Assembly: GCF_000069185.1 (NCBI RefSeq)
Contig: NC_010397.1
Location: forward strand, 3,534,001-3,598,000
DNA length: 64,000 nt
Origin: Mycobacteroides abscessus ATCC 19977
Lineage (GTDB): Bacteria; Actinomycetota; Actinomycetes; Mycobacteriales; Mycobacteriaceae
Direction: 5' to 3'
The notes below the pieces were generated by a model. It did not search any database. It was given only the letters and a program-made list of their open reading frames with translations, and had not been told where the DNA came from. Positions 15,265-18,667 of the stretch are shown here, piece after piece (positions within the stretch are counted from its first letter, which is position 1; each line of letters begins with the position of its first letter). Made by a program: the position numbers and the translations under genes.

Positions 15265-15478
15265 TTGTCAATAAACAGTTAGTTACATGCGGCGCTATCC
15301 GCTGCCCGCCTCTTGCCCCGTCCGGCAACACCCCTACCGGATCGACCTACCGCGGCGAGTCTGCCCCGCCACACAAGAGGTCCTGACCGGGAGCGTATTC
15401 ACGCCACAGCATCGGCACGGCTACTCTTCCGAGAGGACGTCACGGCAACGATGCCGGACCGAGAGGGTACGAGGTGAC

Positions 15479-16828
15479 ATGGCAGATATTCGCCGCGGCG
15501 GACTCAGCCGAATGACCAAACTGGCAAGCCTGCCCGCCGGCATGGCAGGACGGGCCGTCCTTGGTGTTGGCAAACGGCTGACCGGGACGTCGGCCGACGA
15601 GGTCAACGCCGAACTCTTGGAGAAGGCGGCCGACGAGCTGTTCAAGGTGCTCGGCGAACTCAAGGGCGGCGCCATGAAAGTGGGGCAGGCATTGTCGGTG
15701 ATGGAGGCCGCGATACCGCCCCAATTCGCCGACCCGTTCCGCGAGGCGTTGGTGAAACTGCAGAGCGAGGCACCGCCGCTGCCGACACCCAAGGTGCATC
15801 GCGTGCTCGACGCACAGCTCGGCACCAAATGGCGCGAACGCTTCCAATCCTTCGACGACACTCCCGTCGCTTCGGCCAGCATCGGCCAGGTGCACAAGGG
15901 AGTATGGAAGGACGGCCGCGAGGTGGCCGTCAAGATCCAGTACCCGGGCGCCGACGATGCCTTACGCGCGGATCTCAAACTCATTCAGCGGATGACACCG
16001 TTGGCCAAACAGATTGCGCCCAAGGCAGATATCGACAGGCTGGTGGCCGAGATCAGCGACCGCATCGAAGCCGAGCTGGACTATCGCCTGGAGGCGTCCA
16101 ATCAGCGCGCGTTCGCAAAGGTCTTCGCCAGCGATCCGAAGTTCTTTGTACCGGCGGTTGTCGCCAGCGCTCCCAAGGTGATCATCGCCGAGTGGATGGA
16201 AGGACGCCGGATCTCAAAGATCATCGCCGAGGGCACCCGCGAGGAGCGTGACTCCGCGGGCGCCTTGATGCTCGAATTCACAGTGAAGTCACCGGAAAGC
16301 GTGGGGCTGGTGCATGCCGATCCGCACCCCGGAAACTTCATGCTGTTGCCCGACGGACGTTTCGGCATCATCGATTTCGGTGCGGTCTCGGAGCACCCTG
16401 GCGGCATTCCGCCGGAGTTCGGCGAGGTGCTGTGCTGGGCGCGCGATGAGCAGTGGGACCAGGTGATCCGTCTGATCAAGCAGCTCGGCTTCATGCCGCC
16501 GGACGTTCAGCTGTCCGGGGATCAGGTGATGGATTACATCAGACCGCTTTGGCCCTATGTCGATCCGCTGCGCGCGGGTGAGTTCCATTTCACCCGCGAG
16601 TGGTTCCAGCAGGCCGCAGTCGCGTCGACCGACCTGTTGGACGAGGGATTCGCGGACCGATTCAAATTGGCGCGTCAGATGACGGTGCCGCCGGGTTACG
16701 TCATGCTGCTGCGCACTCTCGGCGGCATGATCGGGGTTCTGGTGCAACTCGATGCGCATGTGAACTACGCGGCGATCGCCGAACAATGGATGCCGGGATT
16801 CTTCCCGCCTAACTCCACATCGGCCTAA
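15479..16828 (+). CDS. ABC1/UbiB (ADCK-type) atypical kinase, copy 3
   Basis: 449 residues. The ATG at 15479 follows GAGGTGAC and gives the same N-terminus as copies 1 and 2 (MADIRRGG); the open frame further upstream is not needed. Motifs are KVGQ, ASASIGQVHKGVW, VAVKIQYPG, EAELDYRLEA, HADPHPGN and IDFG. It has the commoner HADPHPGN where copies 1 and 2 have HADTHPGN, and it is the most diverged of the three. It is transcribed on its own from the region divergent to the SDR and ends at a long hairpin before whiB7. Function as for the family; substrate unknown. Confidence 0.9.
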   Translation: MADIRRGGLSRMTKLASLPAGMAGRAVLGVGKRLTGTSADEVNAELLEKAADELFKVLGELKGGAMKVGQALSVMEAAIPPQFADPFREALVKLQSEAPPLPTPKVHRVLDAQLGTKWRERFQSFDDTPVASASIGQVHKGVWKDGREVAVKIQYPGADDALRADLKLIQRMTPLAKQIAPKADIDRLVAEISDRIEAELDYRLEASNQRAFAKVFASDPKFFVPAVVASAPKVIIAEWMEGRRISKIIAEGTREERDSAGALMLEFTVKSPESVGLVHADPHPGNFMLLPDGRFGIIDFGAVSEHPGGIPPEFGEVLCWARDEQWDQVIRLIKQLGFMPPDVQLSGDQVMDYIRPLWPYVDPLRAGEFHFTREWFQQAAVASTDLLDEGFADRFKLARQMTVPPGYVMLLRTLGGMIGVLVQLDAHVNYAAIAEQWMPGFFPPNSTSA

Positions 16829-16904: not shown

Positions 16905-17189
16905 TCATGCCGCGGCGGTGTCGGCGTCGGGCAGTGGGTTCTTGCGCGGGCGTCCACGCGGCCGCTTGCGCGCCACAATGGTCCCCTGCTCAAGAATCTC
17001 ACCGCCCCACACTCCCCACGGCTCTGCGCGGTCCAGCGCAGCGGCCAGGCACTGCGACCGGATCGGGCAGTCCGCGCACAGCGCCTTCGCCCGCTCCAGG
17101 TCGGCGGGGCTTTCCGCGAACCACAGGTCCGCGTCCGCGACGTGGCACGGCAGCGCGAGTCTTCGGGCCTCCACTTCAACGGTCATCAT
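16905..17189 (-). CDS. whiB7: WhiB7 transcriptional activator of intrinsic antibiotic resistance
   Basis: 94 residues from the first of two adjacent ATG codons (17189, 17186). Four cysteines (LPCHV, CADC and RSQC) bind the [4Fe-4S] cluster. EPWGVWGGE contacts the principal sigma factor, and the C-terminal RPRGRPRK is the AT-hook that distinguishes WhiB7 from other WhiB proteins. In mycobacteria it activates resistance genes for ribosome-targeting antibiotics and its own gene. The open frame extends another 35 codons upstream but that lies in the leader. A regulated leader of about 450 bases precedes it (see the entries at 17291-17680). Confidence 0.97.
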   Translation of the reverse strand: MMTVEVEARRLALPCHVADADLWFAESPADLERAKALCADCPIRSQCLAAALDRAEPWGVWGGEILEQGTIVARKRPRGRPRKNPLPDADTAAA

Positions 17190-17290
17190 GTGTCCGTTCA
17201 CCTGCTTCCTCTTCGGTTCCTCGTAAAACTGCTGGTCTCGTATCGGTGTCTTATCGATCGAGATCCGGAACCACGCTTGAGGTTTGGGGC

Positions 17291-17336
17291 TCAAACAAAT
17301 GTGGCCACGGATCCCGGTGGTGTCGGGTCCGTGGCC
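17291..17336 (-). terminator. whiB7 leader attenuator (intrinsic terminator)
   Basis: A 13-14 bp stem with one bulge (17303-17316 and 17324-17336), followed on the minus strand by ACATTTGTTTGAG, lies between the upstream ORF and whiB7. Transcription arriving from the whiB7 promoter would stop here unless another fold forms. This is the expected attenuator of the known whiB7 leader mechanism. Confidence 0.8.
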
Positions 17337-17350
17337 TGGGAGGCGGTTGT

Positions 17351-17372
17351 GGGGATACCTAGATGTATCCCC
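17351..17372 (-). promoter_or_regulatory. Hairpin enclosing the stop codon of the whiB7 upstream ORF
   Basis: GGGGATAC and GTATCCCC are perfect 8-base arms around a 6-base loop, and the loop contains the TAG stop of the upstream ORF. A ribosome finishing or stalling near the end of the ORF would cover this stem and change which downstream structure forms. Confidence 0.6.
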
Positions 17373-17571
17373 TATTCACGGACGCGACATTCGCGGCTGC
17401 GACGGCGGCGCGGTGCTTAATCGCGGAAGCCGAGCCGGCCATCAACACGGCAGCTACCGCCGGCTTGGCGGCGGCACGCGTCTGGAGCGACGGCGGAGCG
17501 ATCGGCAACACGACAAAGGCACCATGGGCATCACGCCACAAGGTGTCTCCGTAATTGGTGGGTGTGTTCAT
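17359..17571 (-). CDS. Alanine-rich leader ORF (uORF) of whiB7
   Basis: 70 codons from the ATG at 17571. The Shine-Dalgarno stretch GGAAGGAGGAG, 4 bases upstream, is among the strongest in the window. Eighteen residues are Ala, fifteen of them between residues 33 and 63 (RAAAKPAVAAV...RAAVAAANVA). It begins about 65 bases downstream of the predicted transcription start and ends in a hairpin just ahead of the attenuator. In mycobacteria whiB7 is controlled by translation of such an upstream ORF, and induction by alanine shortage has been reported, which fits this composition. It probably works as a sensor, not as a product. Confidence 0.8.
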   Translation of the reverse strand: MNTPTNYGDTLWRDAHGAFVVLPIAPPSLQTRAAAKPAVAAVLMAGSASAIKHRAAVAAANVASVNRGYI

Positions 17572-17642
17572 TTCGCTCCTCCTTCCGTCTACTCGCACGT
17601 GAACAGGTCTTGGTTTGGAATCCTCGCGAATTCCTGAAGCCC

Positions 17643-17680
17643 AGAGTAAAAGGTCACCTATCGGTTGACAAGTTATTTTT
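17643..17680 (-). promoter_or_regulatory. whiB7 promoter of the WhiB7-activated type
   Basis: On the minus strand the order is AAAAATAA (17673-17680), one base, -35 TTGTCA (17666-17671), a 17-base spacer and -10 TACTCT (17643-17648). An AT-rich block directly upstream of the -35 is the known WhiB7 target that its AT-hook reads. The predicted start is near 17636. Confidence 0.8.
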
Positions 17681-17781
17681 GACCTGCGGCGATACTTCAA
17701 AACCAGTTTCGTCGAACTGGCATCTTTTCTCGGTGAGACATGGCCGAAGATCAGCGGTGGCCCACCCTGGCACCGAAATCA

Positions 17782-17842: not shown

Positions 17843-18667
17843 CTACACGGAAGTGAGCAGCCGCGAGCGGAAAAGATCCAACACCTGGTCGAGGGCCGCC
17901 CGTGTGGGCTGCCCGGGCTCATCGATGAGATGTTCGGTCACCACCGAGTGCGGCGGCATCGGCGAACCAGGACGAGCGGACTCACCGGGCAGCTCGATTG
18001 CAATGAACGCGTCCCCCAGTTCGTCGCGCAGGAACTGAAAACGCTCGGCGGGCACCAGTTTGTCGGTGGTGAAGCGCATGCCGATCACCTTGAGCCCCTC
18101 ATGCTGGCAGCGGTGCTTGACCTTGCTCAGGTCCTCCGGAGAGATATCGATGTTGTACCGGGCCTTCTTACTGAGGCCGAACGGTAGCGAGGGCTGCGAC
18201 AGCACCGGTGCGAGCAGCCTGTCGTCTGCCGCCATGGCCAGCGCGTATCCACCGGTGAAACACATGCCGATGGCACCGACCCCCGGGCCGCCGTTGCGCT
18301 CATGTTCGTTCTGCGCCAGCGCCCGCAGCCAGTTGATCACCGACGAGGTCTTCCCCGTCGCCAGCACCGTAAATTCGCGGCTCACGCATCCCCGGAACAT
18401 CGAAGACGCCATGTAGGTGCTGGTACGCAGCCAACCATCGGCCTTCGGGTCGACGCTTTGGCCGGGATTCCCGAAGAGGTGCGGCATGACGGCGGTGCAA
18501 CCGATATCAGCCACCTTGCGCGCGAAGTCGGCGACCCTGGGGCTGATTCCGGGCATCTCGGCGATGACGATCACCGCCGGTCCGCTGCCCTTTCGCAATA
18601 CGATCTTGGTTTCACCCTCGTGAGTGAAGGTGCCTGCTTCGAAATCGCGGAGGTCATCATCGGCCAT
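17843..18667 (-). CDS. Dienelactone hydrolase family protein
   Basis: 274 residues of alpha/beta hydrolase type. The nucleophile motif is GMCFTGG (G-x-C-x-G-G) near residue 134, with Cys as in dienelactone hydrolases. The acid and His are presumably in the C-terminal third (for example PPHSVVTEH). The early segment VIVIAEMPGISPRVADFARKV is also typical. Substrate unknown; these enzymes cleave lactones or small esters. It lies upstream of the whiB7 leader on the same strand and is not in the M. tuberculosis order as I remember it. The start ATG has only a weak ribosome site. Confidence 0.85.
   Translation of the reverse strand: MADDDLRDFEAGTFTHEGETKIVLRKGSGPAVIVIAEMPGISPRVADFARKVADIGCTAVMPHLFGNPGQSVDPKADGWLRTSTYMASSMFRGCVSREFTVLATGKTSSVINWLRALAQNEHERNGGPGVGAIGMCFTGGYALAMAADDRLLAPVLSQPSLPFGLSKKARYNIDISPEDLSKVKHRCQHEGLKVIGMRFTTDKLVPAERFQFLRDELGDAFIAIELPGESARPGSPMPPHSVVTEHLIDEPGQPTRAALDQVLDLFRSRLLTSV

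What the first reader, a model, noticed from the sequence alone, without database searches (positions are those of the whole stretch)
16905..17680. Complete whiB7 attenuation leader with a 70-codon alanine-rich sensor ORF
Every part of a translation-dependent attenuator can be read: a WhiB7-type promoter with an AT block next to the -35, a very strong ribosome site, an ORF with 15 Ala in residues 33-63, a hairpin whose loop is the ORF stop codon, an intrinsic terminator with T run, then whiB7. Alanine starvation and ribosome-targeting drugs are reported inducers of mycobacterial whiB7, and this leader gives a direct structural reason.
Basis: partly seen in the sequence, partly recalled or inferred. 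Interest (0 to 1): 0.7.

Follow-up and report, generated by a model that had tools for sequence, protein, structure and literature searches.

The report
Known whiB7 attenuator, possible macrolide motif

Summary
Observation confirmed; the system is already known. The window matches Mycobacterium (Mycobacteroides) abscessus ATCC 19977, where this ORF is MAB_3509c, 'uORF of whiB7', and a published WhiB7 ChIP peak falls on the promoter seen here.

Every listed part exists. The antiterminator pairs uORF codons 62-65 (17377-17388) with the terminator's 5' arm (17322-17333). It is predicted in 116 of 117 comparable leaders of the genus before the terminator is complete; the terminator in 117 of 117. 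A ribosome on the last codons hides codons 62-65; one stalled earlier leaves them free.

Ala is the commonest residue in 124 of 124 genus uORFs, but starvation for other amino acids is also reported to induce whiB7, so Ala is not the only sensor.

Possibly new: a Lys/Arg-X-Lys/Arg motif, a known ketolide/macrolide arrest signature, precedes the antiterminator in 107 of 116 anchored uORFs (13 expected from shuffles), usually by 8 or 9 codons, where a stall still frees the switch. That suggests, but does not show, a composite drug and alanine sensor. The three main papers on this leader were not available to me.

The parts
17643..17680 (-). Promoter: AT block AAAAATAAC, -35 TTGTCA, 17-nt spacer, -10 TACTCT
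   Evidence: Sequence. The same pattern upstream of 122 of 124 genus uORFs, 0.0016 per shuffled leader. Published WhiB7 ChIP peak at genome 3551647 = window 17647 (PMC10727445; offset).
17578..17584 (-). Shine-Dalgarno AAGGAGG, 6 nt before the ATG
   Evidence: Sequence. AAGGAGG stands before 75 of 124 genus uORFs.
17359..17571 (-). uORF, 70 codons, ATG to TAG (MAB_3509c in the literature)
   Evidence: a conserved uORF at this place in 124 of 141 fetched genus leaders.
17383..17475 (-). Ala-rich stretch, codons 33-63 (15 Ala)
17410..17418 (-). Basic motif Lys52-His53-Arg54 (+X+), 10 codons before the anchor Ser64
   Evidence: +X+ in 107 of 116 anchored genus uORFs.
17377..17388 (-). Antiterminator 5' arm GTCGCGTCCGTG = codons Val62-Ala63-Ser64-Val65
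   Evidence: The inner TCCGTG is nearly invariant; the outer pairs are not.
17351..17372 (-). Stop hairpin, stop codon TAG in the loop, inside the antiterminator loop
   Evidence: conservation.
17322..17333 (-). Antiterminator 3' arm CACGGACCCGAC, overlapping the terminator 5' arm
17303..17336 (-). Terminator hairpin GGCCACGGACCCG ... CGGGATCCGTGGCC
   Evidence: 8 of the 9 pairs of its outer helix standard in 124 of 124 leaders, the ninth in 123.
17290..17302 (-). T-rich tail ACATTTGTTTGAG
   Evidence: Sequence.
17259..17316 (-). Alternative hairpin of the freed terminator 3' arm with a downstream element (read-through state)
   Evidence: Minimum-energy fold; not tested further.
16905..17186 (-). 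whiB7, 93 codons from the ATG used by the search (an upstream start is possible)

Best explanation
It is the known whiB7 transcription attenuator. A promoter that WhiB7 itself binds makes the uORF RNA. A ribosome that translates to the end covers codons 62-65 while the polymerase makes the terminator arms; the terminator forms and transcription stops before whiB7. A ribosome that stalls at about codon 59 or earlier leaves codons 62-65 free; they pair with the terminator's 5' arm as it emerges, and whiB7 is transcribed. Stalls come from ribosome-targeting drugs and from lack of charged tRNA, alanyl-tRNA above all because of the many Ala codons. Shown here by computation: the parts, their conservation, the mutually exclusive pairings and the stall-position cut-off. 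Inferred: the order of folding in the cell, the actual stall sites and what is sensed.
For: Antiterminator core predicted in 116 of 117 and terminator in 117 of 117 comparable genus leaders. The core lies 19 nt from the end of the stop in 87 of 117. With a simulated ribosome in 112 leaders, 95-100% of core antiterminator pairs form before the terminator 3' arm is made when the A site is 5 or more codons before the anchor Ser, 79% at 4, 2% or less from 3 on. In the window 16 of 18 Ala codons are in the permissive zone. Ala is the commonest residue in 124 of 124 genus uORFs, mean 0.298 against 0.121 in the window's long ORFs and 0.093 and 0.082 in the other frames. Held papers state uORF, terminator, antiterminator and induction by stalling.
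Against: No covariation support: the arms are nearly invariant; paired cells 0.740 against 0.725 (max 0.732) in shuffles for the antiterminator and 0.913 against 0.912 for the terminator, and 19 of 22 double-change cells come from one outer pair. Only the inner core of the antiterminator is conserved; the outermost pairs form in 20 of 121 and 45 of 123 leaders. Once the terminator is complete it is the minimum-energy fold for all 44 stall positions tried in the window's sequence, and with 70 nt more the antiterminator wins at 4 of 44 (codons 36, 37, 56, 57); the switch must be kinetic. 12 of 141 fetched genus leaders show no uORF by the rules used, one of them cut short.
Confidence: 0.9

Rival explanations
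1. Composite sensor (an extension, not an exclusion, of the best explanation): macrolides or ketolides arrest the ribosome at the conserved basic +X+ motif (Lys52-His53-Arg54 here), phenicols and oxazolidinones arrest it in the Ala run, and the Ala run also reports alanine starvation.
For: +X+ within 20 residues before the anchor in 107 of 116 genus uORFs, shuffled mean 13.4, max 24 of 300. Nearest +X+ has its second basic residue 6-11 codons before the anchor, 8 or 9 in 91 of 107, all in the permissive zone. Within the basic patch -12 to -8 the spacing +X+ beats shuffles of the same residues (101 against 73.7, max 84) while ++ (75 against 81.0) and +XX+ (44 against 63.8) do not. In other genera of the family 19 of 25 anchored uORFs (null 4.2, max 9). 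+X+ is an arrest signature used in erm leaders (PMC8298421); chloramphenicol stalls after Ala, Ser or Thr (PMC12121999).
Against: Not every +X+ stalls, erythromycin is less strict than telithromycin, and Arg-X-Arg is stronger than Lys-X-Lys. In the genus the motif's nucleotides are also similar (AAGCGCCGC, AAGCACCGT and others), so an RNA constraint is not excluded. 7 of 124 genus uORFs have no +X+ anywhere. Spacing is looser outside the genus, and 19 of 44 family uORFs could not be anchored. whiB7 also answers to many non-macrolide stresses.
Confidence: 0.3
2. The Ala richness is a by-product of base composition or RNA structure, and any stall works equally well.
For: A serine-tRNA toxin gives the strongest induction of whiB7 in M. 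abscessus (PMC10287673). Ala content falls to a mean of 0.259 in 44 family and 0.171 in 34 class uORFs, so the mechanism does not need it.
Against: Other frames of the same uORFs have 0.093 and 0.082 Ala, Gly and Pro are not enriched, and all four Ala codons are used. AAA occurs before the anchor in 106 of 116 against 48.7 in shuffles.
Confidence: 0.12
3. The stop hairpin is the regulatory element, as the finding implies.
For: A stem around the stop is more frequent than chance (116 of 117 against 69%) and the spacer folds better than shuffles (mean z -1.5).
Against: It does not overlap the terminator and is compatible with both states; the apical-loop form is in 72 of 117 against 41%.
Confidence: 0.04
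4. The uORF product acts as a small protein in trans.
For: Its C-terminal part (K-[RH]-R ... A-S-V-[DN]-R-G) is well conserved.
Against: 36 to 101 residues long with a variable N-terminal half; no Pfam or NCBIfam family; the Ser-Val codons coincide with the antiterminator arm, whose TCC is invariant in 124 of 124 aligned leaders.
Confidence: 0.03

Closest known systems
whiB7/wblC uORF attenuator of actinobacteria (Burian & Thompson 2018; Lee et al. 2022; Poulton et al. 2024; not held, known here through held papers that cite them)
   Same: Same gene, same order of parts, and this species' own uORF is named in PMC10727445, which also states an antiterminator from overlapping uORF and terminator sequences
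   Different: Nothing in the anatomy; the +X+ motif and the codon-resolved cut-off are points I could not find in the held papers, while the three main papers were not readable
Amino-acid biosynthesis attenuators with sensor codons (e.g. ilvB1 leader of M. tuberculosis, PMC13236596)
   Same: uORF rich in one kind of residue, terminator and antiterminator exclusive, stall position decides
   Different: The controlled gene is a regulator of drug response, and many drugs and stresses induce it
erm-type macrolide leader peptides such as ErmDL (PMC8298421)
   Same: Basic +X+ motif in a uORF ahead of a drug-response gene
   Different: In ErmDL the motif is at residues 6-8 of the leader and arrest is shown; here it is at codons 52-54 of 70, control is of transcription termination, and arrest is untested

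Membership tests
whiB7 uORF attenuator | Translated uORF with Shine-Dalgarno upstream of whiB7 | tested here: met
   124 of 141 genus leaders. Translation itself only from literature: ribosome-protected small ORFs near whiB7 in M. abscessus (PMC4974804, passages).
whiB7 uORF attenuator | Rho-independent terminator between uORF and whiB7 | tested here: met
whiB7 uORF attenuator | Antiterminator from uORF and terminator sequences | tested here: met
   Predicted by folding; no covariation support.
whiB7 uORF attenuator | WhiB7-dependent promoter (AT block beside the -35) | tested here: met
   Pattern in 122 of 124; published ChIP peak at 17647.
whiB7 uORF attenuator | Induction by ribosome stalling | not testable with these tools
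   Literature only.
Alanine-sensing attenuator | Enrichment of the sensed residue upstream of the antiterminator arm | tested here: met
   16 of 18 Ala codons in the permissive zone.
Alanine-sensing attenuator | Response to that amino acid alone | tested here: inconclusive
   Not run here; reports of induction by loss of a serine tRNA speak against it (PMC10287673).
Macrolide-arrest leader (erm type) | +X+ arrest motif at a place where arrest changes the RNA fold | tested here: met
   107 of 116, all at permissive distances by the model.
Macrolide-arrest leader (erm type) | Drug-dependent ribosome arrest at the motif | not testable with these tools
   PMC12121999 says stalling in the whiB7 uORF had not been tested.

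The most novel reading that the evidence does not exclude
The whiB7 uORF is a composite ribosome-stress sensor: a conserved basic +X+ motif placed 6-11 codons (mostly 8 or 9) before the antiterminator arm is a dedicated macrolide/ketolide arrest site, and the Ala run ahead of it serves alanine starvation and phenicol/oxazolidinone arrest.
Probability: 0.3. Interest if true: 0.5.

Novelty: already known. Interest (0 to 1): 0.28.

Why it matters
The leader controls intrinsic drug response in mycobacteria and its mechanism is largely published. The useful additions are position-resolved predictions: which codons can switch whiB7 on (up to about codon 59 here), and a conserved basic motif that could explain macrolide induction. 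They turn a general 'stalling' model into a test at single codons.

Tried and rejected
Rejected: the stop hairpin as the switch (no overlap with the terminator). Rejected as proof: covariation.

Rows dropped: 7 of 148 genus genomes had only weak WhiB hits and were not fetched. Of 141 fetched loci, 3 (L135, L136, L140) were left out by hand before the uORF choice; of the 17 not used, 3 show an ordinary uORF with a weaker SD (L042, L063, L119), 2 a doubtful one (L122, L140), 12 none, one of them cut short at 93 nt (L139). 7 of 124 had no TCCGT within 45 nt of the stop. 8 of 124 had no in-frame anchor. In one search, 112 of 124 were used. Outside the genus I examined 46 loci of 114 matching genomes of other genera of the family and 36 of 150 of other families, partly the best-scoring ones, with a slightly looser SD rule; 2 of 46 and 2 of 36 gave no uORF, and 19 of the 44 family uORFs had no anchor. 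The anchor (in-frame TCC before GT) was chosen by me, so Ser and Val at the anchor are true by definition.

Full report
Where it is. The window is bases 3534001-3598000 of contig C2 of its assembly, a contig of 5,067,172 bases, which I recall as the size of the M. abscessus ATCC 19977 chromosome. A paper that worked with that strain lists a WhiB7 ChIP-seq peak at 3551647 upstream of MAB_3509c, 'Hypothetical protein (uORF of whiB7)' (PMC10727445, passages). That position is window 17647, inside the promoter's -10 box. The closest named match found is Mycobacteroides franklinii, 97% in WhiB7. The locus is therefore taken as the published whiB7 leader of M. abscessus. The downstream ORF is WhiB7 (Pfam Whib E 7e-16; solved M. 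tuberculosis WhiB7 E 3e-37).

What was checked. Promoter, SD, 70-codon ORF, Ala counts, stop hairpin and terminator are as described, on the minus strand. The ORF has 18 Ala, 15 of them in residues 33-63. None of 18,543 windows of 31 residues in 55 long ORFs of the window reaches 15 Ala, but 42 of 16,398 windows of 70 residues reach 18. The T run after the terminator is interrupted.

Folding the stretch that begins 30 nt before the end of the stop codon gives another structure: uORF codons 62-65 (GTCGCGTCCGTG) pair with the terminator's 5' arm (CACGGACCCGAC), and the freed terminator 3' arm pairs with a downstream element. The stretch 17390-17322 alone folds at -34.4 kcal/mol (z -5.5), stop hairpin included; the terminator stretch 17350-17290 folds at -26.8 (z -5.1). 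With 48 nt instead of 30 nt of uORF included, the minimum-energy fold of the whole is the terminator. The stop hairpin sits inside the antiterminator loop and does not overlap the terminator.

Comparison within the genus. Of 148 genomes searched, 148 had some WhiB match; 141 leaders were fetched and 124 gave a uORF by the rule used. The terminator's outer helix and the antiterminator core are almost invariant, so covariation says nothing either way. In 117 comparable leaders the antiterminator core pairs in 116 before the terminator 3' arm is made, and the terminator forms in 117 when the RNA up to 9 nt past the stop is hidden. The core lies at one fixed distance from the stop, 19 nt, in 87 of 117. 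The stop codon is enclosed by at least 5 pairs in 116 of 117 against 68.6% in shuffles; it lies in an apical loop in 72 of 117 against 41%. The promoter pattern is present in 122 of 124 against 0.0016 per shuffled leader.

Which stalls work. A simulated ribosome, covering 12 nt beyond the first base of its A-site codon, was moved along the uORF (the footprint is my assumption). In 112 leaders 95-100% of the core antiterminator pairs form before the terminator 3' arm is made when the A site is 5 or more codons before the anchor Ser (codon 64 here), 79% at 4, and 2% or less from 3 on. In the window this means stalls up to about codon 59; 16 of the 18 Ala codons are in that zone. Against a simple equilibrium switch: once the terminator is complete, it is the minimum-energy fold for all 44 stall positions tried in the window's sequence; with 70 nt more the antiterminator wins at 4 of 44. 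Across the 112 leaders the antiterminator share at permissive positions is 3-46% at the terminator's end and 25-54% with 70 nt more. The decision must be kinetic, as is usual for attenuators; that step is inferred.

Alanine. Ala is the commonest residue in 124 of 124 genus uORFs (mean 0.298, range 0.172-0.449), against 0.121 in the window's long ORFs and 0.093 and 0.082 in the other two frames. The mean is 0.259 in 44 uORFs of other genera of the family, where Ala is the commonest in 44 of 44, and 0.171 in 34 of other families, where it is the commonest in 26 of 34; no proteome background was computed for those. This fits induction by alanine starvation, reported by Poulton et al. 2024, which is not held and which I saw only as cited. 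It is not exclusive: amino acid starvation in general is cited as inducing, and whiB7 was the most induced transcript after the VapC5 toxin removed a serine tRNA in M. abscessus (PMC10287673, passages).

The basic motif. 107 of 116 anchored uORFs carry Lys/Arg-X-Lys/Arg within 20 residues before the anchor, against a shuffled mean of 13.4 and maximum of 24 in 300. The second basic residue of the nearest one is 8 or 9 codons before the anchor in 91 of 107, and 6 to 11 in all 107; in the window it is Arg54, 10 before. Within the 5-residue patch -12 to -8 the +X+ spacing is favoured over shuffles of the same residues (101 of 116 against 73.7, max 84), while ++ (75 against 81.0) and +XX+ (44 against 63.8) are not. 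Seven of 124 uORFs have no +X+ at all. In other genera of the family it is in 19 of 25 anchored uORFs (null 4.2, max 9), for instance as Arg-Leu-Arg, with looser spacing. In the genus the nucleotides of the motif are similar too, so an RNA constraint is not ruled out.

+X+ is a known ketolide and macrolide arrest signature used in erm leaders; not every +X+ stalls and erythromycin is less strict (PMC8298421, abstract and passages). Chloramphenicol is reported to stall after Ala, Ser or Thr (PMC12121999, passage); linezolid is said to stall by a defined nascent-chain residue in the abstract start of PMC8987054 (listing only), and that the residue is Ala is recalled. PMC12121999 (2025) says that stalling within the whiB7 uORF by antibiotics had not been tested. 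My searches on whiB7 with alanine codons, stalling motifs, nascent peptides and leader peptide with arginine showed no title or abstract start that names the motif, and I did not read those papers in full; the three main papers on this leader are not held. So I do not claim that the motif is unpublished.

What is in print. Held papers, seen as passages, describe the uORF and terminator (PMC4128351), the antiterminator, drug induction and this species' uORF (PMC10727445), the model in reviews (PMC11550727; PMC9618640), termination and ribosome tracks on the M. tuberculosis leader (PMC13236596, legend), and feed-forward control in M. smegmatis (PMC13393426). PMC4974804 reports up-regulated small ORFs from ribosome profiling near whiB7 in M. 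abscessus. The finding itself is therefore already known; the basic motif is the one point I rate as a possible addition.

Noticed in passing
15287-16828 (+): The gene next to whiB7 is an ABC1-type kinase that matches the NCBIfam model of macrolide-binding ATPase MABP-1 at E 1.2e-188 but with 627 bits, below the curated cut-off of 800.
   Followed up: no
17703-17720: A terminator-like hairpin lies between the end of the dienelactone-hydrolase-like gene (17843-18667, minus) and the whiB7 promoter (scored on the plus strand; the minus strand also has a T run after it).
   Followed up: no
L062, L100, L104, L113, L123, L127, L130, L135, L137: Nine genus leaders without a uORF by my rules still hold TCCGTG upstream of GGCCACGG; in L100, L127, L130 and L137 the GGCCACGG lies only 31-54 nt before the estimated whiB7 start. 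Unexplained: missed starts, or another form of control.
   Followed up: partly
L140, L141: Two genomes of about 3.2-3.3 Mb have only partial WhiB7 matches (E 1.8e-17 and 1.6e-14), yet their upstream regions still hold TCCGTG and GGCCACGG.
   Followed up: no
G156, G185, G197, G203, G219, G281: Six genomes of other genera of the family carry a second WhiB7-like match (E 1e-33 to 1e-31); the leaders of these second copies were not examined.
   Followed up: no
L170-L189, L212, L216, L220, L230: In many leaders of other families the uORF ends in a different motif, such as AWSPPV or WGPPV before the stop, so the end of the uORF has changed with lineage while the layout is kept.
   Followed up: no
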